From an uncultured Prevotellaceae bacterium (GTDB lineage: Bacteria; Bacteroidota; Bacteroidia; Bacteroidales; Bacteroidaceae): a stretch of DNA of 64,000 nucleotides. The notes beneath the pieces are model-generated. The model saw nothing but the letters and a program-made list of their open reading frames with translations. It had not been told where the DNA came from and made no database searches. The DNA is taken from contig CADACW010000019.1 in the NCBI GenBank assembly GCA_902786565.1, positions 1 through 64,000 on the forward strand. Direction: 5' to 3'. This document shows, in pieces, positions 2,473 through 55,857 of the stretch. A program made the translations under genes and the position numbers. The number at the start of each line of letters is the position of its first letter. The first letter of the stretch is position 1.

Positions 2473-5400
2473 TTACTTTATCACGATTTTGTTACCATTA
2501 TAGATGTACACACCCTTCCTCGTCGGGCGCTGCGGCAGCTCTATGCCGTTCACGGTGTACCACTTGCCCAGCTCTTGGTCGGCGTTGAGGGTGTCGATGC
2601 CTGTTGCGCTGGTGGCAAAGCGGAGGGCGAAGGGTTCGTCGGGACTGCCCACCACGTCGTCGACGCGGAAGGTGAGCACGTTGCCGGTCGAGGCGACGAT
2701 GTCGCCGTTGCGCTCGATGGCAAACCAGAGGTCGGCCTGCTTCTCGCCGCCGATATTGAGGTAGAGCGGCTCGCTTTCCTCAGCGGCAGAACCGCTGAGC
2801 ACAGTGGTGGTGAAGCCGCGCTGCTCGCCGTCGGCGTAGGCCACAAGGAGGTCGCCCTCCTCAGGCTCGAAGCCCTCTATGACGGCAGTCAGCGACATGG
2901 TGTGGCGGTATCTGTGGGCACCCAACGGAGAAGCGGCGGGCACAGTGGCATCGTTGCCGTTCACATCGGTAGATGCGGACGGGACGTCCGCGCTCCCATC
3001 TTCTGCGGCACTGCGGCTTCCGGCCACTGCCCATGCGTCGAGGAAGGTGCTGCCCGGCTCATAGAAGGGGTAGCGGAACGAGGCCTCGCCTTCAGCCTTG
3101 CGCAACAGCATGTATCCCTCGCCGGGCTTCATGTACTGCAGGTTTCCACGCCAGCGGCCCGTGCCGCCCGTCTTGGTGAAGTAGGCAAACTCGCTGTGGC
3201 TCTTGATGATGTCGCCCGGCGTGGCGTTGTCGTAGTAGTCGCTCAGGGCGGTCTCCACGCTCAGGTTCAGTATCGGCGTGTAGCCTATGCCGTTCCAGCC
3301 GTTGCTGACGGTTATGGTGCGCGTGTCCTCGCTCTTGATGATGCTGCCGCCTACGGGGAACTGTATATCCTGTGCCACCTTGATGGCGTAGCCTTTCCTT
3401 GGCGATATGCGCAGTTTCTTCACGTCGCCCGTTGCCAGCCACGTTCCGTTCTTGTAGGTCATCGTCACGTTGCCGCTCATCTCCGTCAGCACGTCGCCGT
3501 TCTCCCAGGGCAGTCCGCCGAGCAGGGTGTTCAGGTCGAAGAGCTTCTCGCTGGCCACGTTGAACGACACCCAGTTCCAGCCCTCCTTCAGGTCGAAGGT
3601 CTGCACATACAGGCTGCCGCCCTCGAAGCGCACGGGCGTATCTACGCCCACGATGGTGTCGTTCCTGAAGGTCATGCTCTCCTTGCCGTCGGCGGTGAGC
3701 ACCATCTCGCGGCCGGTGGAGTACTGCCATATCTTGAAGTAGAGTTCCGTGCCCTTCTTGCTGCTGTCGTAGACGGTGAGGAAGAGGTCGCTCTCTCCCG
3801 TCAGTGCCGAGTAGTTGACGTGTGCGATGCCGTGGCAGCGGTTCTCGCGGTCGAATACGCCCACGATGTCGCGGCTGTCGATGTCCACCTCGCCGTTCAG
3901 GATGACCTGTCCCGCGATGTTCATCGAGTATTTCAGCAGGTCTTCGTCCACGCTCCATGACCATTCGGGTGCCGATGTCGTCACGGTCAGGTTCAGGTAG
4001 AGCGGCTCGGCCACGCCGTCCTCGTCGGTCAGGTAGATGATTTCGTCGTAGGTGCCCACGTTCAGGCCCTTGTTCACCACGCCCCTTATGGTTACGGTGC
4101 CCAGCGGGCCGATGATGCCGGTGTAGGCCTCCATGTCGAGCCATCGCGGACAGTTCTCTATGGTGTACGTGTGAGAGGTCGCGCTGTTGTTGATGATGTC
4201 GAAGTAGATATAGTCCTCATAGCCGTAGCTGGCCAACCAGGTCTGGCGCTCGTTCTGCCAGCGCAGGCTGCTGTTGGTCACGTAGTAGCAGGCCGTCTGC
4301 GGCGACACCATCGCGTTGCCGTTCTTGTCCTCCACGTCGCGCAGCGTCACGTAGATGTTCCTGCGGTTGATGCGCGAGGCCAGTTCGTCGAGTTCCACCA
4401 GCACCTGGTTGTCCTTGCCGGCGAAGCTGAACTTCAGGTTCGTCAGCTCCTCGTAGGGCACCACGGGTGCTGCCGTCTCGTTGGTGATGTGGCGTAGGAT
4501 TTCGTCGGCAGAACCGACGAACACGTAGTCGCGCACCGGCGTCGTGGTGGCCTGCTTCGTCACGGGATCCAGTTCGTAGCGCACCTCGCCCCTGTCGTCA
4601 AGGTATATCTTCTTGCTCCACGTATAGGCCACCGTCTCGATGTCGTTGTCCTTCTGCCGCTCCTGACGGTCGAAGGCGAGGTAGGTCAGCAGCCCGGCCT
4701 CGTCGCCCTGCGGGCTCTTCGTGGCGTATGCCTTGATGAGCGTCAGCGGCAGTGCCTGCTGGAACATGCAGAGTTCGTCCACGTAGCCTGTCATGTCGCT
4801 GACGAGGCCCTCGATGGTGACGGTCACCGTGCAGGTGGCTGTCAGCCCACCGTCCACCGTGGTGGCGGTGATGGTGGCGGTGCCGAGGGCCACGCCAGTC
4901 ACTGTGCCGTCGTTCACCGTAGCCACGGCGGCATTGCTCGTCGTCCACGTCACGCTCTTGTCCGAGGCGTTGGCGGGGGCGATGGTCGCCATCAGTGTCT
5001 CGCTGCTGCCCATAGTTATCGAGAGCCTTGTCTTGTTGAGCGACACGCCCGTCACAGGCTGTATGACGGTCACTTCGCAGGTGGCGGTCTGACCGTTGGA
5101 GGAGGTGGCGGTGATGGTGGCAGTGCCGGGAGCCACGGCAGTCACCGTGCCGTCGGCCACGGTAGCCACGGCGGCGTTGCTCGTCGTCCACGTCACGCTC
5201 TTGTCCGTGGCATTGGGCGGATAGACGGTTGCCGTCAGCGTCTCCGTGCTGCCCACGACAAGTGTGGTGTTGACCTTGTTGAGCGATACGCCCGTGGTGA
5301 GTCGTATGACGGTGACCGTGCAGGTGGCGGTATACCCTCCGTCTACGGTAGTCACGGTGATGGTGGCGGTGCCGGGTGCTACGGCGGTCACCGTTCCGTC

Positions 5401-8400
5401 AGCCACGGTAGCCACGTCGGCGTTGCTCGTTGCCCACGTCACGCTCTTGATTGTAGCGTTGTCGGGGATGACCGTCGCCGTCAGCGTCTCGCTGCTGCCC
5501 ACAGGTAGCGTGGTGCTGGTCTTGTTGAGCGTCACGCCCGTAGCAGGATGTATGACGGTTACTTTGCAGGTGGCAGTCTTTGCTCCGTCGGCGGTGGTCA
5601 CGGTGATGGTGGCTGTGCCGAGAGCCACAGCGGTTACCGTTCCGTCAGTCACAGTGGCCACGTTGGCATTGCTCGTCGTCCACGTCACATTCATATTTCT
5701 GGCGTTACTCGGAGTTAAAGTTGCTGTCAGCTTCTCGGTGCTGCCTATAGTTAGCGTGGTAGTGGTCTTGTTGAGCGACACGTCCGTCACAGCACGTGGG
5801 GCGTAGGTGTATGGACTTTCGCTGATGACGCCTACAGTACCGCCGATGGTGACGGTGCCGACCGAATTGTTGAGCCCCACGCCGATGCTGTTGATGGCAG
5901 ATGCACCTTTGATGGCGGTCAATTCGTACACGCCGTCGGTGATGGTTATGTCGCCACACGAACCGCTATAACTGCCAATGCCAGCCGCATGGTAACCACC
6001 TCTTGCGGTGATGGTGCCACCCGATATGGTGATTTCGCCACATGAGCCTCCATGCCCGCCGATGCCTGCCCCATTTTTTCCACCTGTGGCGGTGATAGTA
6101 CCGCCCGTGATGGTGATTTTGCCGCACGACCCATATTGGCCGCTTAGGTCGCTGTATGCGTTGCCGATGCCAGCACCAGTTTCACCGCCTGTTGCTGTGA
6201 TGTTGCCGCCCGTGATGGTAATGTTGCCACACGATCTGGTACCGCTGCCGATGCCAGCTGAACCAAAACCGCCCGTAGCGATAATGGTGCCGCTCTCTAT
6301 GATGATGTTGCCGCATTCTCGGCTCCATCCACCGCCGATGCCAGTAGCGTAACCGTTGCTTGAAGCGTTGAGGGAGCCGTCGCCCTTGATGGTCAGCGTC
6401 TTGCCCTCTGCGACGTGGATGCCGGGATAATTTTCATAGAATCCCTTCACTATATTGTTGCCTTTGAGAATGATAGTGCCACCGCCATAGCAGTCGATTC
6501 CAGGATGATGTCCAACCCATGTTCCGCTGCCATTGATGTTTACGCCGTCGAGTGTCACGGTGGCTCCGCTGGCAACGCTGATCTTCACGTCCTTGCCGAG
6601 CGTGCCGGTGAGCACGTCGCCGTACTTGGCCTCATAGTCGGCGGTAATTGTCGAGAGATCCACAGTTTTGCCCATAACAGCCGTTGGCTCTGCGAACTGT
6701 GTGCGGGCAGACGCAATGGCGGTGTTGTCCGTCACGCCGGGCACGTAACCGCCGATGACGGGCGTGCCGCCGCTGATGCCGCCGAGTGAGTCGGGCGAGA
6801 AGGTGGCCTTCAGTGCCTGGTCCACGTAGATGTTCGCCACGCCGCGTGCGCGGTTCACGGTCATGGCGTAGTGGTGCCACTGGTCGTCGTTGTAGCCGCT
6901 GCCCGCCTCCACGGTCATGCCGTTGGAGCGGAAGGCCAGCGTTCCGTCGTCGAAGCCGAGCCAGAAGTGGTTCTCTGCGCCGGCCTCGTCTTTCTCCCCG
7001 CTGCCGTTGCTCACGAGCGTACCGTCCGCGTCAGCGGTCTTGAACCAGAACATCATGGTGTAGTCCTGCTCCGCTGTGCGGGCCAGTGCCTGCTGCGTCA
7101 GCGCCACGCCGCCGTTGTCCAAGCTCAGCGACCATCCTCGCGGCATGGCCCACGAGGCGCCCATCAGCTGCGCGTTGGCCCCCTGCGTCTTGTCGAGGGC
7201 GTAGTCGCCCGTGCCCTCGTTCATCGGGTAGTAATCGACAAGTCCCATCTCGTAGCCCGTTAGTCGCTTGCTGCCGTAGGTGGTGCCCACCTGTCCGCCC
7301 GTCATGGCTCGGTACCACACGCGGGCCTCCATCATGCGGCCCTCGTAGTACTGGCTCTTCGAGCGGTTGGTCTCGTTGGTGCGTCCGAAGATGAGGCGGC
7401 CCGTGCCGTTGTAGGGTTCGGTCATCTTGAAGGAGCCGAGCTGCTTGCCGCCGTTGTAGAAGGTTAAAGCCCCCTCTTCTGCCCCCGAGGGGGCTACTAT
7501 AGACATTGCCACCTGCGTAAATCCGCTCTTGACGATGGTGTCGGTGGAGAGGAACGTCTGGTCATCGATGATGGCTTTCAGGTGGTAGTCCGCAGTGAGC
7601 CACAGTTGCAGACGCTTGCCGTTGGTGCCGTGCGAGAAGAGGGGCATGTCGCGTCCCGTCTTGTCGGGGCGCACCATCAGGTCGATGGTCAGGTCCTTGC
7701 CGCTGAAGTTGCGCTGTGCCTCGCTCTCCACGCTGCCCTCTCCCGTGAACTGCACGCTGACGGCGTCCGTCACGTTGTCGTTGTTCACCTCGCCCTTCAC
7801 CTCGAAGTTGGTGATGGCGTTCAGGTAGTTATACTCTATGTCCTCCGAGAAGTTGAAGATGATGTTGCCGCCCAGTCGCAGTATGCCGTCCTTCGGCTCG
7901 GGTGTGCCGAAGAGCTGCGGTCGGCGCGTGTCCTTCACGCCGCTGACGATGGGCGACGAGGTGGTGAGGAACGAGTTGCCGTTCCTACAGTAGAGCACAG
8001 CCCGCAGGTCGTATGCCTTCTCCATCACCGTGCCTTCGCCGTAGAAGTGTGCCTCTATGTTGCCGTTCTCGGGTATCATCTCGCGCTGGCCGCTGGCCGC
8101 CTTCATCAGCTCCTCGTCGGCATAGTAGGAGCAGAGGTTGGTCCAGGCGTCATCGCCGCGCAGCGTCTCCTTGTACTGGAACTCTATGTGGTCGAAGTTG
8201 TGCTGGTGACGGTCGAATCCGTCGATGATGACGGGCATGTACCATCCCCGGTCATTGTCATACTGTGCGTAGGTGTTCATCACCCACTTGTCGCCTGGCA
8301 GCGAGATGTTCACGGGTCCGGCCTGGTGCAGGTAGTGTACGTCAAGTGTCAGCTCGTCGTAGATTTGCCGCCAGTCCTGTTCGGAGGCGATGCCGATGGT

Positions 8401-15895: not shown

Positions 15896-16007
15896 CAAAA
15901 AAAATTGTAATTATGCTCCGATAGGGAAGAAAATCTTCTTAAAAGGACGCATTTTGAGGTCTGACGATTGCGCGCTTGGGTGACGTAAACGGCGACGGCG
16001 TGGTGGA

Positions 16008-16090
16008 GTTATAAGGCTTCTAACTCACAGTTATATACCTTCTAACTCATAGTTATATACCTTCTAACTCATAGTTATAAGGCTTATAAC
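16008..16090. repeat. About 22-bp tandem repeat, locus 1
   Basis: Three to four imperfect units of GAGTTAGAAGGTATATAACT (read on the minus strand) lie in tandem. The same family occurs at 25201-25237 and 55791-55857. Confidence 0.85.
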
Positions 16091-18370: not shown

Positions 18371-20935
18371 ATGTCATATACAACTGAGAAAGTGGCGACG
18401 CTCATCGGCGCACGCCGCTACGGACGAACAAACATCAGCATCGGGTGGCTGCTCACCGACAGCCGCTCGCTCTGTTTCCCCGAACAGACACTCTTCTTCG
18501 CCCTCCGCACAAAGGTGGGCGACGGCCACCGATACATAGGCGAGCTCTACCGCCGAGGCGTCAGGGCTTTCGTCGTAGAACACGTGCCCGACAACTATGC
18601 CGACGACTATGCCGACGCCGCCTTCCTGCAAGTGCCCTCGCCGCTGGCCGCCCTGCAACGGCTGGCCGAGCGCCATCGCGACGAGTTCGACATACCCGTG
18701 GTGGGCATCACGGGCTCAAACGGCAAGACCTGGGTCAAGGAGTGGCTCTACCAGACACTGCGCGGCAGCAGCGTGGTTCAGCAGCCCGACGGCGTGTTGC
18801 ACGGCGTGACCCGCTCGCCCCGCTCCTACAACTCGCAGATAGGCGTGCCCCTCTCAGTATGGCTGCTGTCAGAACAGTCGGCCATCGGACTCTTCGAGGC
18901 CGGCATCAGCGAGCCCGGCGAGATGATGGCCCTGCACGACATCATCCAGCCCACCATCGGCGTGTTCACATCGCTGGGCGCCGCCCATCAGGAGAACTTC
19001 CGCACGCTGGAGGAGAAATGTCTGGAGAAGATGCAGCTCTTCCACGGCACCAAAGCCATCGTCTATCCCAGCGACGACGACACCATCAGCCGCTGCGTGC
19101 GCCGCTCGCAATATCAGGGCGAGCGCATAGGCTGGAGCCGATTCAACGAGAAGGCCGCCATGTACGTGCAACTGCCGCCGTCCGCCAGCCAATCAACCAC
19201 CATCGACTATGTGTACAAGGGCGTGAAGGGCAGCTATACCATCCCCTTCGTCGACGAGGCTTCCGTGGAGAACAGCATCACCTGCGCCGCCACAGCACTC
19301 TATCTGGGCGTCAGGCCCGACGAGCTGGCACAGGCCATGGCCACCCTGGAGCCCATCGCCATGCGACTGGAGGTGAAACAGGGGCAGCGCGGACTCACGC
19401 TCATCAACGACTCATACAACAGCGACCTGCAGTCGCTCGACATTGCCCTCGACTTTATGAACCGCCGTGAGTTCAAGGACCAGCCGTCGGTACTCATTCT
19501 GAGCGACATCGTGCAGAGCGGCGAAACACCAGCCGAACTCTACCGCCAAGTGGCCGACCTGGCCGCCAAGCGCGGCATAGACCAGTTTGTGGGCATCGGG
19601 CCCGTCATCACGTCGCAGGCCGACAAGTTCGACATGCCCAAGAAGTGGTTCTTCACCGACGTGCCCCACTTCCTGGAGAGTGCCTTCTTCCGCCAGATGC
19701 ACAATGAGGTGGTGCTGCTCAAGGGTGCACGCCGCTTCGGATTTGAGCACATCAGCGAACTGCTGGAGCAAAAGGTCCACGAGACCATTCTCGAGGTCGA
19801 CCTGGGGGCCGTGGTGGCCAATCTGAACCACTTCCGCTCGCTGCTCAAGCCTGAGACGAAGATGGTGTGCATGATCAAGGCCGACGCCTACGGGGCAGGA
19901 GCCGTGGAGATTGCACGCACGCTGCAGGAAAACCGGGTGGACTATCTGGCCGTGGCCGTGGCCGACGAGGGTGCCGAGCTGCGCCGCGCCGGCATCACGC
20001 AGAACATCATCGTGATGAACCCTGAAATGTCATCGTTCAAGACACTCTTCGACTACGACCTGGAACCAGAGGTGTACAGCTTCCGGCTGATGGACGCCCT
20101 CATCAAGGCGGCCCGCACCCAGGGCATCACGGGCTGGCCCGTACACATCAAGCTGGACACCGGCATGCACCGGCTGGGATTCAACAGCGCCGACGATGCC
20201 GAGATGGGCCAGCTCATCGACCGTCTGCACCACCAGCAGGCCATCATTCCGCGCTCGGTATTCTCACATTTCGTGGGGAGTGACAGCGACGACTTCGACG
20301 CTTTCTCTGCCCAGCAGTTCCAGCTCTTCATGCACGCCAGCGACCAGTTGCAGGCCGCTTTCCCGCACAAGATTCTGCGGCACATCGACAATTCGGCCGG
20401 CATCGAGCACTTCCCCGAGCGGCAGCTCGACATGTGCCGTCTGGGCATCGGCCTTTACGGCGTGGAGCCTTATCTCCCGCCCACCTCTCACCCCTCACCT
20501 CTCACCTCTCACCTCTCACCTCTCACCTCTCACCCCTCACCTCTGCAGACCGTCTCAACGCTGAAGACCACCATCCTGCAACTGCGACACGTCAAACAGG
20601 GAGAGACCGTGGGCTACAGCCGCAAGGGCGTGTTGGAGCGCGACAGCATCATTGCCGCCATCCCTATTGGCTACGCCGACGGGCTGAACCGCCGCTTGGG
20701 CAACCGCCACTGCTACTGTCTGGTGAATGGGAAGAAGGCCGAATATGTGGGCAACATCTGCATGGACGTGGCCCTCATCGACGTCACAGAAATACCGTGC
20801 CAGGAGGGCGACTCGGTGGAGATTTTCGGTCGCCAGCTGCCTGTCACGGTATTGAGCGATGCGCTCGGCACCATCGCCTACGAGGTGCTCACCAGCGTGA
20901 GCAACCGCGTGAAGCGTATCTACTTCAAGGACTAA
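18371..20935 (+). CDS. murF-alr: Bifunctional MurF / alanine racemase
   Basis: This is an 854-aa fusion typical of Bacteroidetes. The N-terminal half is UDP-N-acetylmuramoyl-tripeptide-D-alanyl-D-alanine ligase (ATP loop GITGSNGKTWVKEWL; NDSYNSD). The C-terminal half, from about residue 470, is a PLP-dependent alanine racemase (LEVDLGAVVANLNHFR; MIKADAYGAGA with the PLP lysine; LDTGMHRLG; CRLGIGLYGVEPY; GNICMDV). Together they make D-Ala and add D-Ala-D-Ala to the peptidoglycan precursor. Ddl, encoded at 51-52 kb, supplies the middle step. An unusual Ser/Pro/Thr/Leu/His-rich insert right after YGVEPY (DNA 20481-20544) is encoded by a 7-bp repeat. The gene overlaps the convergent GH31 gene by 4 bp at its 3' end. 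Confidence 0.93.
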   Translation: MSYTTEKVATLIGARRYGRTNISIGWLLTDSRSLCFPEQTLFFALRTKVGDGHRYIGELYRRGVRAFVVEHVPDNYADDYADAAFLQVPSPLAALQRLAERHRDEFDIPVVGITGSNGKTWVKEWLYQTLRGSSVVQQPDGVLHGVTRSPRSYNSQIGVPLSVWLLSEQSAIGLFEAGISEPGEMMALHDIIQPTIGVFTSLGAAHQENFRTLEEKCLEKMQLFHGTKAIVYPSDDDTISRCVRRSQYQGERIGWSRFNEKAAMYVQLPPSASQSTTIDYVYKGVKGSYTIPFVDEASVENSITCAATALYLGVRPDELAQAMATLEPIAMRLEVKQGQRGLTLINDSYNSDLQSLDIALDFMNRREFKDQPSVLILSDIVQSGETPAELYRQVADLAAKRGIDQFVGIGPVITSQADKFDMPKKWFFTDVPHFLESAFFRQMHNEVVLLKGARRFGFEHISELLEQKVHETILEVDLGAVVANLNHFRSLLKPETKMVCMIKADAYGAGAVEIARTLQENRVDYLAVAVADEGAELRRAGITQNIIVMNPEMSSFKTLFDYDLEPEVYSFRLMDALIKAARTQGITGWPVHIKLDTGMHRLGFNSADDAEMGQLIDRLHHQQAIIPRSVFSHFVGSDSDDFDAFSAQQFQLFMHASDQLQAAFPHKILRHIDNSAGIEHFPERQLDMCRLGIGLYGVEPYLPPTSHPSPLTSHLSPLTSHPSPLQTVSTLKTTILQLRHVKQGETVGYSRKGVLERDSIIAAIPIGYADGLNRRLGNRHCYCLVNGKKAEYVGNICMDVALIDVTEIPCQEGDSVEIFGRQLPVTVLSDALGTIAYEVLTSVSNRVKRIYFKD
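20481..20544. repeat. 7-bp tandem repeat (CACCTCT) inside murF-alr
   Basis: About nine units of CACCTCT (with CACCCCT variants) are read in frame as repeating LTSHLSP/LTSHPSP, inserted after the YGVEPY motif of the racemase domain. Confidence 0.9.
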
Positions 20936-27483: not shown

Positions 27484-29430
27484 ATGAAACAGATATTCAC
27501 GGTATTGGCGCTGCTGCTACTGCACTGCGGCGCAGCAGAGGGGAAAGAATGTAGGCTCACCTCACCCAACGGGAAGATTGGGGTGACGGTGAGCGACAAC
27601 AGGGGGCTGCACATCAGCGTGACGTGCGGAGGAAACGAAGTGGTGAACGTCACTGCGGGCATGAACGGCCAAACGCTACGCATCGGCAGCGCAAAGCGGA
27701 GCACGGTCAACATAGATACGGACGCGCCGCTCTACCGACAGCCACACATCAGACTGGCCGGACAGCAGGCCGACTTGAGGCTGAACGACGGATGGGGCCT
27801 GCAAGTGAGGGCCTGCGACGAGGGCGTGGCCTACCGCTTCTATACCCAGAACAAGGGCGAGACCGTGGTCAGCGACGAACTGGCCGACTTCCGGTTCCCT
27901 GAAGAGGCGAAAGGCTGGCTGGCCTACACCACCAATACGGAAAAGCCATTCGCCATGGCCTTCCAGAACACCTACCACGAGACGCACTTGGTGGATGCCC
28001 GCCCCTTGCCCGCCTTCCTACCCGCCACCGTCGAGGTGGCCGGCGGAGTGAAGGTCACCATCCTGGAGAGCGACCTGCGCAGTTATCCGGGTATGTTTGT
28101 GACGGCAGACGGCAACGGGCTGAAGGCCTGCTTCGCCAAATACCCCAAACGGATGGACTACTACAGATGGCGCGGTATGTCGTATGTCAGTGAGACCGAG
28201 GACTATATAGCCAAGTCGACGGGACGCCGCACCTACCCCTGGCGCGTGCTGGCCATCACCGAGCGGGACACCGACATGCCCGTGAACGATATGGTCTACG
28301 CCCTGGCCGAGCCTAACCGCATAGGCGACACGGGCTGGATAAAGCCCGGAAAAGTGGCCTGGGACTGGTGGAACGACTGGAACCTGCGCGGCGTCAACTT
28401 CGAGGCGGGCATCAACACCGACACCTATCTGCACTACATCGACTTCGCCGACAAATACGGACTGCAATACGTGGTGCTCGACGAGGGGTGGTACGACTCC
28501 AGCCGCGCCGACTTGATGAACGCCATACCGGCCATCGACCTGCCCCGCATCATCGGCCATGCCAGCAAGAAGGGCATCGGCATCGTGCTGTGGACGGTGT
28601 TCAACGTGCTGGACGAGCACCTGGAGGAGGCTTGCCGCAAATACGCCGACATGGGTGTCATGGGTTTCAAGGTGGACTTCCTGGACCGCAACGACCAGAC
28701 TGCGGTGGAGATGGCAGAGCGCATTGCCGCCGTAGCCGCCAGCCACCGGCTGATGCTGGACTACCACGGCTTCTACACGCCCACGGGCCTCAGCCGCACC
28801 TATCCCAACGTGGTCAACTACGAAGGCGTGTTCGGTATGGAGGAGTGCCGGTGGGCCAAGAAAGAGACCGACATGCCGCGCTACGACGTCACTTTCCCCT
28901 TCATGCGTATGATGGCCGGACAGGTGGACTTCACGCCGGGTGCCATGCGCAACGGTACCCGCGAGAACTGGGTGGAGTGCTACCAGAATCCCGTCTCGAT
29001 GGGTACGCGCTGCCATCAAGCCGCCTGCTATGTGGTGCACGACTCGCCCTTCACCATGCTCTGCGACGCGCCCAGCAACTACGAGCGCGAGCCCGACTAC
29101 ACCAAGTTCATCGCCGCCATCCCAGTGGTATGGGACGAGACGCGGGTGCTGCAGGGCGAGATGGGCAAATACATCGTCAGCGCCCGCCGCAAAGGCCACA
29201 ACTGGTACGTGGGCGGACAGACAGGATGGGACAAGCGTGAGGTGACGCTGCCCCTCTCATTCCTCGGCGACGGCCAGTATGAGGTGACGCTCCTGGCCGA
29301 CGGCATCAATGCCAACCACAATGCAGAAGACTACACGCTGACCACCACCCAACACAAAGCCGCCGACCGTATGACCATCAAAATGGCCTCCGGCGGCGGC
29401 TTTGTGCTGAAGTGCCGTCAGCTTCCCTAA
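27484..29430 (+). CDS. GH97 family glycoside hydrolase
   Basis: This is a 648-aa secreted protein (signal MKQIFTVLALLLLHCGAAEG) with the GH97 plan: N-terminal beta-sandwich (SPNGKIGVTVSDNRGLHISV), central (beta/alpha)8 barrel (VAWDWWNDW, YVVLDEGWYD, GIVLWTVFN, MGFKVDFLDRNDQ, LDYHGFYTPTG, EGVFGMEECRW) and a C-terminal beta domain. An Asp in KVDF near residue 397 is where retaining GH97 enzymes (alpha-galactosidase type) have their nucleophile, so this may be a retaining member rather than a SusB-type inverting alpha-glucosidase. The start ATG is only 6 bp after the nuclease stop, so transcription probably comes through the RM module. Codon use is GC-rich, like the chromosome. The 3' end overlaps lpxH by 4 bp. 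Confidence 0.9.
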   Translation: MKQIFTVLALLLLHCGAAEGKECRLTSPNGKIGVTVSDNRGLHISVTCGGNEVVNVTAGMNGQTLRIGSAKRSTVNIDTDAPLYRQPHIRLAGQQADLRLNDGWGLQVRACDEGVAYRFYTQNKGETVVSDELADFRFPEEAKGWLAYTTNTEKPFAMAFQNTYHETHLVDARPLPAFLPATVEVAGGVKVTILESDLRSYPGMFVTADGNGLKACFAKYPKRMDYYRWRGMSYVSETEDYIAKSTGRRTYPWRVLAITERDTDMPVNDMVYALAEPNRIGDTGWIKPGKVAWDWWNDWNLRGVNFEAGINTDTYLHYIDFADKYGLQYVVLDEGWYDSSRADLMNAIPAIDLPRIIGHASKKGIGIVLWTVFNVLDEHLEEACRKYADMGVMGFKVDFLDRNDQTAVEMAERIAAVAASHRLMLDYHGFYTPTGLSRTYPNVVNYEGVFGMEECRWAKKETDMPRYDVTFPFMRMMAGQVDFTPGAMRNGTRENWVECYQNPVSMGTRCHQAACYVVHDSPFTMLCDAPSNYEREPDYTKFIAAIPVVWDETRVLQGEMGKYIVSARRKGHNWYVGGQTGWDKREVTLPLSFLGDGQYEVTLLADGINANHNAEDYTLTTTQHKAADRMTIKMASGGGFVLKCRQLP

Positions 29431-30191
29431 AGTATGCTCTCGCCCTCGATGTACTGTGAGGTGAAGAGGTGCTCGCCATCGTAGACCACGTAGCTGAACT
29501 GGCTGATCCAGTCGCCCAGGATGATGACCCGCGCCTTCTTGGTGAGCTGCTTGTCCACATCGATGTGGCGATGGCCGTAGATGAAGTAGTCTACATTGGA
29601 GTGGTACTGGATGTACTTCTTGGTGAAGAGCAGCAGGTGCTCGCGGTCCTCGCCCATATAGGGAGGTTCCTCACCGCCGGGTCGCTTCATCCGCGAGTGT
29701 TTGGCCCACGTCTGGCCGAACCAGATGCCCCAGCGGGGGTGCAGGGCCGAGAAGGCCACCTGGCAGATGCGGTTGTGGAATATCCATTTGATGAGTTTGA
29801 ACCGCGGATTGGGGTCGCCCAGTCCGTCGCCGTGGGCAAGGAAGAATATCTTGCCATAGATTTCGGTGGTGAGAGGTTTCTTGTGGAGAATGACGCCACA
29901 CTCTCGCTCCAGATAATCGTAGGCCCAGATGTCGTGGTTGCCGGTGAAGTAGTGCACCTCCACCCCTCTGTCGGTCAGTTCTGACAGTTTGCCCAGGAAG
30001 CGTGTGTAGCCCTTCGGCACCACATAGCGGTATTCGTACCAGAAGTCGAACATATCGCCGAGCAGATAGACAGCCGCCGCCTTTTCCTTGATGTCATCAA
30101 GAAATCGCACCAGCCGCCGCTCCTGCATCCGCCCGTGCTCCACAGCCCAAGACCCCAAATGGGCATCGGAAAGGAAATAAATATTCTTCAT
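29427..30191 (-). CDS. lpxH: UDP-2,3-diacylglucosamine diphosphatase (LpxH-type)
   Basis: This 254-aa calcineurin-like phosphoesterase has the metal-binding motifs FLSDAHLG, GDMFDFWYE, GNHDIW, HGDGLGD and YGHRHIDV. LpxH removes UMP from UDP-2,3-diacylglucosamine to give lipid X in lipid A synthesis on the inner face of the inner membrane. Size and motif order fit. It lies 2 bp after the MIP18-family gene. Other phosphoesterases of this fold exist, but the extended DFWYEYR motif favours LpxH. Confidence 0.85.
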   Translation of the reverse strand: MKNIYFLSDAHLGSWAVEHGRMQERRLVRFLDDIKEKAAAVYLLGDMFDFWYEYRYVVPKGYTRFLGKLSELTDRGVEVHYFTGNHDIWAYDYLERECGVILHKKPLTTEIYGKIFFLAHGDGLGDPNPRFKLIKWIFHNRICQVAFSALHPRWGIWFGQTWAKHSRMKRPGGEEPPYMGEDREHLLLFTKKYIQYHSNVDYFIYGHRHIDVDKQLTKKARVIILGDWISQFSYVVYDGEHLFTSQYIEGESIL

Positions 30192-30193
30192 AG

Positions 30194-30514
30194 TCAGTCA
30201 AAACCGAGTTCTACTCTTGCTTCTTCGCTCATCATTGACTGGTCCCAGGCCGGCTCGAAGACCAAGTTCACATTGGCCGACTTTACGCCCTCGACGCTCT
30301 CCACCTTGGTGCGCACGTCCTCCAGTATGAAGTCGGCGGCAGGGCAGCTGGGGGCGGTAAACGTCATGTCGATGTCCACCGCCGCGTCGTCCTGCACGTC
30401 AATCTTGTAAATCATTCCCAGGCTGTAGATGTCAACGGGAATCTCCGGGTCGTAGACGGTCTTGAGCACATCTACGATCCGGCCTTCTATCAGTGTTTTT
30501 TCCTCTTGAGTCAT
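30194..30514 (-). CDS. MIP18/DUF59-family iron-sulfur assembly protein (SufT-like)
   Basis: This is a 106-aa protein with the MIP18/DUF59 fold: VYDPEIPVDIYSLGMIYKIDV, then TFTAPSCPAADFI with the conserved Cys, and VNLVFEPAWDQSMMSEEAR. Members help mature Fe-S proteins (SufT, PaaD and eukaryotic CIA2 relatives). Two bp separate it from lpxH. A 7-bp repeat array fills the whole gap to the gene upstream and ends about 5 bp before this start codon. Confidence 0.88.
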   Translation of the reverse strand: MTQEEKTLIEGRIVDVLKTVYDPEIPVDIYSLGMIYKIDVQDDAAVDIDMTFTAPSCPAADFILEDVRTKVESVEGVKSANVNLVFEPAWDQSMMSEEARVELGFD

Positions 30515-30520
30515 TCTAAT

Positions 30521-30700
30521 TGAAAATTGAAGATTGAAGATTGAAGATTATTGAGTGAAGATTGAAAATTGAAGATTGAAGATTGAAAATTGAAGATTGA
30601 AGATTGAAGATTATTGAGTGAAGATTGAAGATTGAAGAATGAAATATGTAAAGGGCAGTTCCATTTTCAATCTTCAATCTTCAATTTTCAATCTTCAACA
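30521..30700. repeat. 7-bp tandem repeat array with inverted portion
   Basis: Direct ATTGAAG/ATTGAAA units run from about 30521 to 30640 with one longer period broken by TATTGAGTG. From 30665 to 30700 the complement units (CAATCTT/CAATTTT) run the other way. The two parts can pair into a long stem between two co-directional genes. The stop codon and last codons of the isomerase-like gene lie inside the array. Confidence 0.9.
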
Positions 30701-32121
30701 TTATGCACGTAGAGCTGCCAGCCGAGATAGGTCTCGATGGCCTCGTTGAGAATGTCGACCACATCGGTGCGGCACATGGCCACGTGGTGCTCGAATCCGT
30801 TCTTGCAGATATACTTCATCAGTTTCTGCAGGTTGTCCACCTTCGTCACGGCGATGCAGCCGTCCATGCCGTAGGGGTCGTTGGTGATTTCGCCCTTGCC
30901 CAGATAGGCCTTGATGCAGCCACGCGGGTCGTCGGTCGATATGCGGAAGAAGGTGAATGGGCCCTCACTCACTTTGGCATTGACGGCTCCGAAGGTGCGC
31001 ACCTTGCCCAGTGTGCGTCCCAGCACGCCGAGCGGTCCGAGTTTCAGGTCGTCGTTGCCCACAAACTGGCGTGGGAAGTTGCCGCAATGGGTGCAGACGC
31101 ACTTGTTGCGGTCTTCGGCGAAGTTGTTGTTCCAGTCGAGCAGGGCTGGTGCCTGCTGCGAGGCCAGGGCAAGGGCATACATCGACACGGCGCCTGACAG
31201 GTCGGTCTCGCAGGCGGCCGGGATGAGCTTGTCTGAGAGCATCGACATGGTCACGCAGGGTGCACAGCCGAAGTTCTGCTCCAGCGAGTCCCAGCACTGT
31301 ATGGCCACGGCCTGCACGTCGTTGGCGGCAATCCACTCTTCAACGGCCACGCTGAACTTGGCCTGGAGTGTCAGTTTCTCACGATAGGCATCGGGCACCT
31401 TGGCGTAGTTGCAGGTGCGCTCGCACATGGCCTTCAGTTTCGGGTCGTCGTCTTGAATCTTCTGGGCGGCAAAGAGAATCTCAGAGAGGTCGGCGGGCAC
31501 CACGGTGATACCGCTTCGCTGCAGCAGCTTCTCGCTGGCGCGGCAGGTGTTGAAGCCCAGCGGGCGGGTGCCAATCTGTCCGAGGCGGCAGTGGCGCAGA
31601 CCGTTCACCACACGGCAGACGGCGGCAAAGCGCTGCAGATCCTGAGCCAGCAGCGGGCTGTAGATGCTGTAGGTGTGGAGGGTGGTGTCGGTGAAGGGGA
31701 TGCCGTACTGATAGAGATTGTTGCACACCGAAATCTTTCCGCAGAACGCGTCGCGGCGGCTATCCAGATCCACCTTGTCGTTCTCGTCATCGCAGGCCTG
31801 CACCATCACGGGCACATTGAGGTCGGCATCGCTAATGGCATTGATGATGCCTATCTCGAAGCCGAAGTTGGGCAGCGAGACCACGATGCCGTCAATCTCA
31901 TCACGGTGTTCGCGGAACTGGCGACTGACCTTCAGGCCGTCCTCGCGGGTCTCAATGCTCGACGAGCCGGTGGGCGTAGCGTCTTCGGGCAGGATGACAT
32001 ACTCATAGCCAAGGTCGCTGAGAGTCTTCAGCAGTTGCTTGCGCACGTCCTTTGCCAACTCAGAGTTAAAGTAGGCGCGTGTTCCGATAATTACGCCGAA
32101 ACAGGTTTTTCCGTTTTTCAT
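30688..32121 (-). CDS. L-fucose/L-arabinose isomerase family protein
   Basis: This is a 477-aa protein of the fucose/arabinose isomerase-like group (COG2407 type): MKNGKTCFGVIIGTRAYFN, DGIVVSLPNFGFE, HCRLGQIGTRPLGFNTCR, AIQCWDSLEQNFGCAPCV, DLSGAVSMYALALA, CVCTHCGNFP. Some relatives act on L-sugars, but many are uncharacterised. The start at 32121 was chosen because conserved sequence begins there and the longer frame would overlap the PL9 gene. It follows PL9 and GH127 genes, so use of a sugar freed from pectin or arabinan (L-arabinose, L-fucose or a uronate derivative) is a reasonable inference. The final codons (VED and stop) are made of a 7-bp repeat unit. Confidence 0.75.
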   Translation of the reverse strand: MKNGKTCFGVIIGTRAYFNSELAKDVRKQLLKTLSDLGYEYVILPEDATPTGSSSIETREDGLKVSRQFREHRDEIDGIVVSLPNFGFEIGIINAISDADLNVPVMVQACDDENDKVDLDSRRDAFCGKISVCNNLYQYGIPFTDTTLHTYSIYSPLLAQDLQRFAAVCRVVNGLRHCRLGQIGTRPLGFNTCRASEKLLQRSGITVVPADLSEILFAAQKIQDDDPKLKAMCERTCNYAKVPDAYREKLTLQAKFSVAVEEWIAANDVQAVAIQCWDSLEQNFGCAPCVTMSMLSDKLIPAACETDLSGAVSMYALALASQQAPALLDWNNNFAEDRNKCVCTHCGNFPRQFVGNDDLKLGPLGVLGRTLGKVRTFGAVNAKVSEGPFTFFRISTDDPRGCIKAYLGKGEITNDPYGMDGCIAVTKVDNLQKLMKYICKNGFEHHVAMCRTDVVDILNEAIETYLGWQLYVHNVED

Positions 32122-32155
32122 AGAGTCTATTTTGGGGTTATGTAACTTTTCATTA

Positions 32156-35100
32156 TCAACGGGCATTCAGTTTCTTAGCCTGACGGAAGTTGGTGCCCTC
32201 GACACTGAAGAGGACTGTTCCGCTGATGCGGGGCAGGCTGACGACGGTGGCAGCGTGGAACGTGTGGGTGCCCAGCAGCCGGCCCTCGGCGGTGTAGGCG
32301 CGCAGGGTGAAGGTGTCGCAGGCCTTGGCTCCCTGAACGGCCACGATGTAGAGGCCGTCGCGGGTCTGGCGCACGTTCAGCTGTGCCCCCTGTGCATTGA
32401 GGGGCGAACTGACAGCCGTCGGCACGTCGGGCAGCACCGTGGTCTCTTTCGGCGTGGTGGCGTCGGCCAGTTCGAAGTCAGTCTCGTAGGCGCCCAGGTC
32501 AGGTGCCTGTCCGGCATACTCGATGGCAGGTATGACCACGTTGGCGGCGGCATACTTCTGGGCATTGGCCTCCACCGTCACTCCTGCATCAATATACTGC
32601 TTGCCCTTCGTCAGGTCTATGTGGGCATAGTCCACCTCGGGCAGCGAACCGTCCTCCTGACGCTCACCGATGAGTTGTTCGGGATGGTTCATGGCCAGGA
32701 AGCACTCAGGAGCGGCCTTCCAGTCGCAGGCTTCCTCTTTCGATGCCACGGTCACCTCAAAGCGTCCCCAGACGCCGCGCTTGCCATCCTCGGTCTCAGA
32801 CCTGTCGGTGGTGAGTCGGTCGTTGATGGCTATGCTGTTCTGGATTTCGCAGACGGAGCCGCTGGCCAGTGCCTCGTAGATGCGGTAGCTGTACGACTTT
32901 CCGCCCACGTCGGTCTGTCCGATGCCAGTGCAGTTGTTCATGATGATGTCGCCCGAATTGTGGTTCTGGTCGAAGCCCTTGTTCAGGTTGCGCACGGCCA
33001 GACAGCGGTTCAGTATGCAGTTCATGCGTCCCTGGTCGGAGCCCATCTTGAAGCCATTGCCATTGCCGCTGGTTGCAGCGCCGTTCATGATGCCGTTCTC
33101 ATAGGCCAGACAGTACTCCATAATGATGGTCTTGTTGTCCTCAAATCCACCCGTCTTCTTGAAGAACACGTCGTAGCCGTCGTCGCTGTTGTTCCAGGCG
33201 CGGCATCCGAACATATAGTTGCCGTCGCCGACCGATATCTTCGGTGCGAAGCCGTCGGCATCGCCGTCGCCCTCGTCCCTGTTCTCATAGCTGTCGCAGT
33301 TGATGATGTAGTTATAGGCGCCCAGGTTCTTCATCTGCAGGCCGGTGTCGCCGTTACGGTAGAAGTTGCACTGCTCAATGATGTTGTCGTGAGCGTCCTG
33401 CGTGCGGGCAATGATGTCGCTGGCCGAGCCGCCGGTGGGCTTGTTGCGCTCAATCAGCATGCCGTTGTCCGAGGCGTTGGTGATGTCAATCTTGTAGAAA
33501 TGCCAGTAGCTGGAGGTCAGTCGCACGCCCTGGTAGGGGTTGTCGGAGTGCTTGTGATAGGGCATTCCGCTGAAGTCGAGCACGGCACGTCCACCATAGG
33601 CGAACACCTGGATGGGAGCCTCAGGCGTGCCGTTGTGGTCGATGATGTTGATGCGCTTGTCGTAGACGTAGGTGCCGGCCTTCATCCAGATGCGGTCGCC
33701 GGGCTCGGCAATGTCGATGGCCTTCTGCAGGTCAAAGAAAGGCTTCTGCTCAGAGCCGTCGGCCACGGTGTCATCGCCGAAGGGCGAGCACCATATTTCG
33801 TCGCCCACAATCTCGTCAGGTTTCTCCTCCACCTCGTCGGTCTTGAAGGAGAGCATCTCGCCGAAAGCGGTGCCCTTGGCTGTTTTGGCATAGGCGCGTA
33901 TATAATATACGGTGTTGTCGTTGAGCGTGAGGGTGGCGGTGAACTTTGCCTTGGGGTCGAGGCTGACCTTTGCTGCCGGCGATTCCGGAGCAACCGGGTC
34001 TGTACCGTAGATGAAGCCCACCTCTGTCAGGGCCATTCCGCCATCGTCTGTCACGATACCGGTGGCCTTATAGCGTGAGCCGCTCTTCACCACTTCCTGG
34101 GTCTGCACCACGGGCATGGTGGCCTCGGCCGTCAGGAAGCTGCGCACGTCGCCATAGGCATAGCCGGCATTGCTGAGGGCGTAGGCACGGTAGTAGACAG
34201 TCTGCTCGGCCTTCAGCCCCGTCACCATGACGGAGAGTTGCAAGTCCTGCGGGTCTTCGGTCTCCACCACGTTGTCGGCCAGGGTGGGCACGCTGTTCTC
34301 GGTGCTCCACACGAATCCGCTCTCCTGTAGGGGCTGGTCGCCGGCATCGACAATGGTGCCCGTCAGCACGGCGGTGTTCTTGGTGATATCGGTGGCGCTG
34401 CCAGTCTCCACGATGGCGGGAGTGCCGTAGGCTTGTGCCGTCACGGCGAGGTTGTCAATGTCGGCGTCGCCGCTGCCATCGTTGGCTATCTTGATGCGGT
34501 TCACCTCCAGGTCGTTGATGGCGATGGCATAGTTGTTGTTGCCCGTGCTTGTCTGTGCCACAGCCTTCCAGGTGCTGCCGCCGTCCTTCGAGGTGTAGCA
34601 GGTCAGTTTGTCGCCCTTGCGGGGTCCGTAGTAGCTGACGCTCTTCACACCATAGTTCAGCACCGGCGTGACCACGTAGCTGCCATTCTTGGGCAGGCGC
34701 AAGTTCATGGTCGAGCCTTCCGCGTTATAGTTGGAGTTGGTCGACTTGTAGGCGTTGTTGTATATCCACACGCCCTGTCCGGTCACATAGTATTCCACGG
34801 CCTGTGCGCCGCTCTCTTGCGGGAAGGCCGTCGGATCCTCGAAGTCCTGCACGAAGTAGGTGCCGTCGGCGGCCACGGTCTGCTCGCTGGCCTCCACAGC
34901 CACCTTGAACGATTTCACCTCGCCGTAGGTCTGTGTGTTGGCATAGCGCACGTAGGCCCGGTAGTAGACGGTGGCCCCCTGCTTCAGTTCTGTCAGCTGG
35001 ACGGTGAAGTCTGAAGCGGGAACGTTTTTGGCCGGTGCCACATTGTCGTTGAGCGTAGGTTCCTTGTTGACGATGCTCCACACGAAGCCTGCCTCCGTCA

Positions 35101-40620: not shown

Positions 40621-40858
40621 GCCGCCGAAAGAGGCAAAACCACCGACACCCGCAGAAAAAACACCTACCGCCCGGAGAAAAAACAGACGGTGCCCGGACA
40701 TAAAACTTAAATTACGTCGTAATTTATTTATATTACGTCGTAATTTATATAAATTTCGTCGTAATTTATATAAATTACGTCGAGCCGTTAAGTTTAGGTG
40801 CGGGGGGCCGGTGTTTTTGCCACGGGGGTCGGAATGTTTTTCGGCGGGGGGCCGAATG
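40621..40858. repeat. Composite inverted repeat with four central palindromes
   Basis: The centre (about 40707-40785) is four tandem copies of the palindrome AAATTACGTCGTAATTT with AT spacers. It is bracketed by AAACTTAA and TTAAGTTT. GC-rich arms outside (40621-40702 and 40797-40858) contain units like CCCGGAGAAAAAACA in opposite orientation. No coding potential is seen. Confidence 0.8.
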
Positions 40859-40943: not shown

Positions 40944-41357
40944 ATGGAGAAGACGATACGCCACGACGGTGTCGTAGAACGGATTGAAGGCACGCACATA
41001 CAGGTGCGTATTCTCCAGACGTCGGCCTGCGCAGGATGCAAGATTGCAGGCCACTGCACGGCATCGGAGTCGAAGGAGAAAGTCATTGATGTGCGCCAGA
41101 CTCCGCCCCCCGGTCTCGGTGTGGGCGACAGTGTGGTGGTCTGTACGTCGGGGGCGGCGGCCGGCAAGGCTCTGCTGCTGGGCTTCGGGGTGCCATTGCT
41201 GCTTCTGCTCGCGGTGCTGGCAGCGATGCTGGCCCTGGGTCAGGGCGAGGGTGCTGCGGCGCTGGGCAGTATAGTGGTGCTTATACCTTATTATATTATA
41301 TTGTGGCTATGCCGCGACCGCATAGGCCGGACGGTGGCCTTTAAAATCGAAGGTTGA
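40944..41357 (+). CDS. rseC: RseC/SoxR-reducing system family protein
   Basis: This 137-aa protein has an N-terminal beta domain with a Cys cluster (QTSACAGCKIAGHC) and two membrane helices (LLLGFGVPLLLLLAVLAAML and LGSIVVLIPYYIILWLC). This is the RseC family layout. RseC partners the Rsx/Rnf complex in reducing SoxR in Enterobacteria. In Bacteroidetes it routinely precedes rnf, with a likely accessory role in Rnf assembly or electron transfer. The start ATG at 40944 was chosen over an in-frame upstream one because the promoter lies at 40928-40935. Its last codons and stop are made of a 7-bp repeat that continues to about 41438. Confidence 0.85.
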   Translation: MEKTIRHDGVVERIEGTHIQVRILQTSACAGCKIAGHCTASESKEKVIDVRQTPPPGLGVGDSVVVCTSGAAAGKALLLGFGVPLLLLLAVLAAMLALGQGEGAAALGSIVVLIPYYIILWLCRDRIGRTVAFKIEG

Positions 41358-41438
41358 AGATTGAAAATTGAAAATTGAAAATTGAAGAATGAAGGTTGAA
41401 GATTGAAAATTGAAAATTGAAGAATGAAAATTGGAAAT
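41349..41438. repeat. 7-bp tandem repeat array between rseC-like and rnfB
   Basis: About twelve direct units of ATTGAAA/ATTGAAG run from the last codons of the rseC-like gene into the gap before rnfB. Confidence 0.88.
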
Positions 41439-43809: not shown

Positions 43810-43851
43810 CAATAACGAGATAACGAGATAACGTCATAACGAGATAACGAA
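43810..43851. repeat. 8-bp tandem repeat (GAGATAAC) between rnfC and rnfD
   Basis: Five units of GAGATAAC (one as GTCATAAC) fill the gap and end three bases before the rnfD start codon. A related array lies after rnfG. Confidence 0.88.
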
Positions 43852-55790: not shown

Positions 55791-55857
55791 CTGGGAGTTA
55801 AAAGGTATATAACTGGGAGTTAAAAGGTATATAAGTGGGAGTTAGAAGGTATATAAC
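55791..55857. repeat. About 22-bp tandem repeat, locus 3
   Basis: Three units of TGGGAGTTAAAAGGTATATAA follow one another between the GH43 gene and the purL promoter. Confidence 0.88.

What the first reader, a model, noticed from the sequence alone, without database searches (positions are those of the whole stretch)
30521..30700. Inverted 7-bp repeat array that fills an operon gap and supplies a stop codon
The sequence shows direct ATTGAAG units followed by complementary CAATCTT units, able to form one long stem between two same-strand genes. The array runs from inside the last codons (VED, stop) of the isomerase-like gene to 5 bp before the MIP18-family start. Such an array could act as an attenuator, a processing site or a slippage-prone switch. 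Heptamer repeats (STRR) are known in cyanobacteria. Their use as operon linkers here looks under-described.
Basis: partly seen in the sequence, partly recalled or inferred. Interest (0 to 1): 0.7.

Follow-up and report, generated by a model that had tools for sequence, protein, structure and literature searches.

The report
Dispersed heptamer hairpin between two genes
The repeat array is one of dozens of look-alike hairpin-forming insertions scattered through a rumen bacterium's genome, and in related species the same structure encloses a small gene of unknown function, which points to a little-known family of mobile-looking elements rather than a custom switch for these two genes.

Summary
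The array is real: direct arm 30519-30643, inverted arm 30666-30698, fold z -7.1. Its TGA is the isomerase stop. The host looks like a rumen Prevotella, not a cyanobacterium. The array is not specific to these genes. In the nearest relative found, the same junction is a 13-bp gap and the isomerase ends YVHE*. Of 37 ATTGANN arrays sampled in this genome, 14 supply a gene's stop codon and 8 lie inside coding sequence; all 11 strictly inverted ones have the stop-rich arm first. Unexpectedly, genes for 23S_rRNA_IVP / four-helix-bundle proteins (PF05635) in this genus are flanked by inverted short tandem arrays: 75 of 96, against 5 of 399 control genes. In two other species such a gene sits between ATTGANN arms. 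Best reading: the window array is an ORF-less member of an IVS-like element family living in mRNA operons. Spread driven by the IVP protein and RNase III cleavage are inferred, not shown. This genome has no ATTGANN-flanked IVP gene, and strain variation could not be tested.

The parts
30519..30643 (+). Direct arm: about 18 ATTGANN heptamers on the + strand; 3' (CTTCAAT) arm of the - strand transcript; contains a 63-bp duplication
   Evidence: (TRF)
30644..30665 (.). 22-bp spacer between the arms (loop)
30666..30698 (-). Inverted arm: ATTGAAR heptamers on the - strand; 5' (stop-rich) arm of the transcript; overlaps the isomerase 3' end
30688..30690 (-). TGA stop codon of the isomerase, formed by the ATTGA core of the arm
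30688..32166 (-). Isomerase-like gene (Fucose_iso_C, PF02952); true start possibly at 32121
30194..30514 (-). SufT/MIP18-family gene (FeS_assembly_P, PF01883)
29427..30191 (-). Metallophosphoesterase gene; the 2-bp SufT-phosphoesterase junction is empty here but holds an IVP element in L065, L160, L161, L167 and L219
1772..1853 (+). Second ATTGANN array (CATTGAC variant), inside an open reading frame and antisense to it
41343..41438 (+). Third ATTGANN array, beginning just after a gene on the same strand

Best explanation
The array is an ORF-less copy of a dispersed, insertion-like element. Its ends are two inverted arrays of a heptamer (core ATTGA, two looser positions); the stop-rich arm comes first in the transcript and its complement second. 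Full-length members in related species carry a PF05635 (23S rRNA intervening-sequence protein, TIGR02436 four-helix bundle) gene between the same arms. Shown: the array replaced the end of the isomerase gene and its linker relative to L065; look-alike arrays are scattered through this genome at gene ends and inside genes; IVP genes in the genus and order are strongly associated with inverted short tandem flanks; ATTGANN arms flank IVP genes at four distinct sites in other species. Inferred: the element inserts at stop/start junctions; new stops arise because the unit closes all frames; the stem is cut by RNase III as in rRNA intervening sequences; the IVP protein or a partner acts on the arms and helps them spread. 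Effect on the host: probably close to neutral, with altered processing or coupling of the two genes as a side effect.
For: Filled versus empty junction: window YVHNVED* plus array, L065 YVHE* plus 13 bp; of 14 orthologues whose ends could be read, 13 end E* and 1 ends ES*. Dispersal: 300 hits against 2 control hits in this genome; 48 of 120 genus genomes carry the exact 21-mer, with 114 hits here and up to 432 in one genome; L065's genome has 57 hits at up to 2 mismatches, control 2, though none at this junction. IVP link: 75 of 96 IVP loci with inverted flanks against 5 of 399 control genes, or 5 of 81 controls with long gaps; shifted-position controls 22 of 30 against 1 of 169 in the genus and 17 of 30 against 0 of 174 in the order. 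ATTGANN arms around IVP genes in L356 and L357 and in 13 of 30 loci of the nearest relatives of the L356 protein, at four distinct sites. Same junction, different states: of 24 SufT-phosphoesterase gaps, 16 are 50 bp or less, 3 are 62-134 bp without IVP (one an ATTGANN array), 5 hold an IVP gene between inverted arrays of differing units (L065 and L219 were added because already known). A second unit, ATAACGNN, flanks an IVP-like gene (L180, below the Pfam cut-off) and recurs at 16 other places in this genome, control 0.
Against: This genome (92% complete) has six PF05635 hits (three over the cut-off) and none has ATTGANN arms. 26 of the 37 sampled arrays have no strict inverted partner. G018 has nine ATTGAAR hits and no PF05635 hit. 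Stop-rich-arm-first is only a mild bias in IVP elements (35 against 18, 22 equal, p 0.03), and arrays of other units can have the opposite order (L123 and L143; ATAACG at C17). Ten of the 13 ATTGANN-armed IVP loci share one site, so they are not independent. No transposition event, target duplication or excision product was seen; the one near-identical pair of IVP copies (G141, 1070 bp, 99.5%) lies nested in another mobile-looking unit.
Confidence: 0.55

Rival explanations
1. Host-serving 3'-end cassette: arrays are kept because they give stops in all three frames and a long hairpin that ends or protects the transcript; IVP genes merely tend to land in such places.
For: 14 of 37 arrays supply the stop, 9 more abut a stop in the sense orientation; strong stem; convergent gene pairs share one array (L059, L061).
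Against: 8 of 37 arrays are inside coding sequences; most lack an inverted arm; homologous junctions in relatives are often short and array-free; orientation is forced wherever the array overlaps the gene end.
Confidence: 0.15
2. Arrays and IVP genes are both passengers of an unidentified mobiliser or of recombination between arrays; IVP has no role in spread.
For: This genome has many ATTGANN arrays and no ATTGANN-flanked IVP gene; G018 has arrays and no IVP; in L085 a 24-bp stretch of coding sequence is overwritten at equal length by heptamers; the 63-bp duplication shows growth by recombination or slippage.
Against: The 75 of 96 against 5 of 399 association and ATTGANN arms around IVP genes at four sites would be unexplained.
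Confidence: 0.17
3. One reading: a slippage-born microsatellite that serves as attenuator or switch for this operon.
For: Array fills the gap, forms a stem and has an internal 63-bp duplication.
Against: Same unit at dozens of other places; isomerase-SufT adjacency seen in 1 of 80 orthologue loci; units elsewhere at homologous gaps differ; the core is conserved while positions 6-7 vary, unlike a freshly slipped repeat.
Confidence: 0.08
4. Arrays are scars of a telomerase-like reverse transcriptase of the DRT10 kind that writes short tandem repeats.
For: DRT10 makes tandem-repeat cDNA of variable motif (PMC12632851, passages).
Against: No PF00078 match in this genome; the paper describes no integration in the passages seen.
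Confidence: 0.02

Closest known systems
23S rRNA intervening sequences (IVS) with an S23p/IVP ORF
   Same: Complementary ends forming a long stem around, in long forms, a PF05635 ORF; suspected mobile or selfish (PMC4990558, passages).
   Different: These sit between protein genes, not in rRNA; the ends are tandem arrays of 7-10 bp units; the window copy has no ORF. RNase III cleavage is shown for IVS, not here.
TAACTGA heptamer repeats of Beggiatoaceae, Cyanobacteria and some Bacteroidetes
   Same: Intergenic heptamers that close all frames; some overlap the stop of the upstream gene; array-free homologous gaps in relatives (PMC4679880, outline, passages and section 12).
   Different: Other unit; almost always direct (one inverted case in that genome); mostly just upstream of starts; no IVP link reported in what I read.
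GGGNATC heptamers of Xanthomonas and Nostoc
   Same: Heptamers near stop codons, some inverted (PMC4692102, passages).
   Different: G-rich, quadruplex-forming; different unit and hosts.
REP/RAYT elements
   Same: Dispersed palindromes whose autonomous form has a gene between inverted ends (recalled; PMC3733652 seen as listing only).
   Different: The gene here is PF05635, not a Y1 transposase; the ends are tandem heptamers.
DGR accessory protein Avd
   Same: Related to PF05635 (PMC10053308, passages); one IVP protein hits NF033474 Avd at 1.6e-6, below its cut-off.
   Different: No reverse transcriptase found in this genome; no template or variable repeat was looked for.

Membership tests
23S rRNA IVS | Inserted in a 23S rRNA gene | tested here: not met
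   Lies between two protein genes
23S rRNA IVS | Complementary ends forming a long stem | tested here: met
   z -7.07, stem of about 35 bp
23S rRNA IVS | Long forms carry a PF05635/S23p ORF | tested here: inconclusive
   No ORF in the window copy; PF05635 genes between the same arms in L356, L357 and the serC/serA-like site of other species
23S rRNA IVS | Excised by RNase III | not testable with these tools
   Needs RNA work
REP/RAYT element | Y1-transposase gene between the ends in full-length copies | tested here: not met
   Full-length copies with ATTGANN arms carry PF05635; RAYT genes were not searched for genome-wide
TAACTGA repeats | Unit TAACTGA | tested here: not met
   Core ATTGA with two looser positions
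TAACTGA repeats | Stops in all three frames, overlap with gene 3' ends | tested here: met
   14 of 37 arrays supply a stop
Cyanobacterial STRR | Cyanobacterial host | tested here: not met
   Orthologue records are Prevotella/Prevotellaceae (and Bacteroidales) titles
Phase-variable simple repeat | Unit number varies between strains or cells | not testable with these tools
   One genome per species is held
DRT10-type repeat synthesis | Reverse transcriptase in the genome | tested here: not met
   0 PF00078 matches in this 92% complete genome

The most novel reading that the evidence does not exclude
PF05635 four-helix-bundle proteins are the trans-acting factors of a widespread class of mRNA intervening sequences in Bacteroidales. 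Each lineage of the protein recognises its own short core repeated in inverted arrays (ATTGANN, ATAACGNN and others), and thereby copies or inserts array elements at stop/start junctions and into tolerant protein loops. The window array is a cargo-less product of this system.
Probability: 0.3. Interest if true: 0.9.

Novelty: new variant of a known kind. Interest (0 to 1): 0.7.

Why it matters
S23p/IVP proteins have no known function (PMC4990558, passages), and the heptamer excess in bacterial genomes has no agreed cause. A tie between the two gives both a test: does an IVP protein bind its own arms, and does it make arrays appear? It would also explain recurrent C-terminal tails such as ...KIED* and odd heptamer-coded loops in conserved enzymes, which could otherwise be taken for functional motifs.

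Tried and rejected
Cyanobacterial STRR: wrong host. Telomerase-like RT: no PF00078 match. G141 twin IVP copies as proof of IVP transposition: rejected, the 1070-bp twin looks like another mobile unit with the IVP element nested in it (the transposase name there is recalled, not searched). Fisher p 1.5e-5 for IVP clade against ATTGANN arms: not used as evidence, because 11 of the 12 loci with at least 67% identity share one site. Counts of period-7 arrays inside genes in the 80 relatives were not used as such, since the home-made gene caller is crude; I relied on translated cases. Presence of ATTGAAR in 3 of 16 genomes without IVP against 45 of 104 with (my count from the tables) was not tested further. 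Compensatory change in the arms was looked at by eye in the serC/serA-like site: positions 6-7 often mismatch, so strict pairing is not conserved; one search suggests a conserved core, but its register was set by that core.

Limits: the 37 arrays come from places printed, whose lists were cut; two of 34 stretches (L031, L052) gave no cluster. IVP flanks were measured from the start codon nearest the profile match, which may be internal in some loci. Two of the five control hits are explained (L065 IVP itself; L099, by recall a RAYT); I left them in. Gene names serS, serC, serA, frdB, rpsG, GlnRS, IleS and SpoT are recalled from sequence, not searched.

Full report
What is there. On the - strand an isomerase-like gene (Fucose_iso_C), a SufT/MIP18 gene (FeS_assembly_P) and a metallophosphoesterase gene follow one another. 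Between the first two lies an inverted heptamer array: an ATTGAAR arm read first by the transcript (30698-30666), a 22-base spacer, and the complementary arm (30643-30519). The 221-nt RNA folds far better than shuffles, z -7.07. The isomerase stop is the TGA of the first arm. The direct arm holds a 63-bp duplication.

It is one of many. The 20-mer has 300 hits at up to 3 mismatches in the 4.03-Mb genome, control 2. In 120 genus genomes the exact 21-mer pattern occurs in 48, with counts from 1 to 432 and 114 here. I took 34 stretches around listed places and examined 37 arrays: 14 supply the stop codon of a gene (15 genes, since L059 serves two convergent genes), 9 begin between -1 and 25 bp after a stop in the sense orientation, 3 are antisense to the upstream gene, 8 lie inside open reading frames, 3 are unclear. 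Several proteins end in the array-coded tail ...KIED* or ...KIEN*. All 11 strictly inverted arrays have ATTGA first and TCAAT second; 26 lack a strict inverted arm.

Empty and filled junctions. Among the 80 best orthologue loci (of 271 relatives found) SufT follows the isomerase directly only in L065, where the gap is 13 bp and the protein ends YVHE*; in the window it ends YVHNVED*. So the array replaced the last codon, the stop and the linker. L065's genome does carry ATTGAAR arrays elsewhere (57 hits at up to 2 mismatches, control 2).

Inside genes. In relatives, heptamer arrays of several units lie in frame inside conserved enzymes: a xylulokinase-like loop is invaded in three of 33 aligned species with two different units, and in the L085 isomerase a 24-bp stretch is replaced at equal length by a heptamer run. 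In this genome arrays occur in ORFs that look like GlnRS, IleS and SpoT (names recalled). In the 80 loci, period 7 gave 54 arrays, period 8 gave 16, and other periods from 5 to 13 gave 5 together. Because ATTGANN closes all frames within 21 bp and its complement closes none, selection alone would leave stop-bearing arrays at gene ends; this explains much of the striking stop-codon pattern.

The IVP link. In L065 the next gap (SufT to phosphoesterase) holds a PF05635/TIGR02436 gene between inverted heptamer arrays of another unit. I therefore tested PF05635 genes in general. Inverted flanks (local score of at least 14) were found in 24 of 36 loci and 51 of 60 further loci, together 75 of 96, against 5 of 399 control genes and 5 of 81 controls with long gaps. 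Direct-orientation scores were not raised (4 of 96 against 13 of 399). With the same geometry shifted along the same loci the figures are 22 of 30 against 1 of 169 in the genus and 17 of 30 against 0 of 174 in the order. Unit lengths are mostly 7-10 bp. In the ATTGAAR-rich genomes G008 and G065, IVP genes lie exactly between ATTGANN arms (L356, L357); in L356 the upstream stop is the arm's TGA. Of the 30 nearest relatives of that protein in 200 genomes, 26 have inverted flanks and 13 have ATTGANN on both sides. Ten of these 13 are one site (serC/serA by recall), so the independent sites are four; in 9 of 14 such loci the upstream stop is an arm TGA.

One junction, several states. In 24 loci with SufT next to the phosphoesterase the gap is 50 bp or less in 16, 62-134 bp without IVP in 3 (L168 an ATTGANN array), and holds IVP (degenerate in L167) between inverted arrays in 5 (two of the five, L065 and L219, were added because already known).

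Against this reading. This genome has six PF05635 hits, three over the cut-off, and none with ATTGANN arms. Arm polarity in IVP elements is only mildly biased towards stops (35 to 18, 22 equal), though 66 of 75 upstream arms are purine-rich. Some arrays of other units have the opposite order. G018 has arrays but no IVP hit. No insertion event was observed, and the only twin copies belong to a different-looking unit.

Known ground. Heptamer repeats with stops, some overlapping gene ends, are described for TAACTGA (PMC4679880; outline, passages, section 12) and GGGNATC (PMC4692102; passages). IVS in 23S rRNA have complementary ends, RNase III excision and an S23p ORF of unknown function (PMC4990558; passages). 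PF05635 resembles Avd of diversity-generating retroelements (PMC10053308; passages). In ten searches of the open PMC library I saw no report of IVP genes flanked by inverted short tandem arrays; subscription papers and preprints outside that library were not searched.

Verdict. Observation confirmed; interpretation partly supported. The array is best read as an ORF-less, IVS-like inserted element with probable side effects on the two genes. How it spreads is open, and the IVP protein is the leading candidate.

Noticed in passing
window 43812-43850: Array of an 8-mer ATAACGNN; the same unit flanks an IVP-like gene (L180) and recurs at 15 further places in this genome.
   Followed up: partly
window 20482-20544: CACCTCT x9 array inside a long ORF that looks like a MurF-alanine racemase fusion (recalled); reads PTSHPSPLTSHLSPLTSH in frame.
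   Followed up: partly
L047 2951-3024 and 3692-3724: ATTGAAR arrays on both sides of a gene that looks like rpsG, before a gene starting MAKQDL (fusA-like, recalled): arrays inside a ribosomal operon.
   Followed up: partly
L061 2901-3024: In a convergent gap, ATTGANN arms lie on both sides of a GC-rich palindrome (ACGCCCGGCGTA...TATGCCGGGCGT) that looks like a terminator.
   Followed up: no
L331 3059-4128 and L332 3079-4148: Two 99.5% identical 1070-bp copies in one genome with unrelated flanks; an IVP gene with inverted flanks seems nested in a broken RAYT-like unit (name recalled).
   Followed up: partly
L177, L178, L179, L180: A longer class of IVP-like proteins (about 250-280 aa) in this genome, each next to its own 8-9 bp tandem arrays.
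   Followed up: partly
L065 5280-5300: The IVP element at the SufT-phosphoesterase gap seems to have changed the phosphoesterase start from ATG to a TTG at the array edge.
   Followed up: no
window 16007-16080, 40708-40782, 55791-55857: 21-22 bp tandem arrays, one made of a near-palindromic unit (TAAATTACGTCGTAATTTATA).
   Followed up: no
window 4818-5787: Four copies of a 246-bp tandem unit.
   Followed up: no
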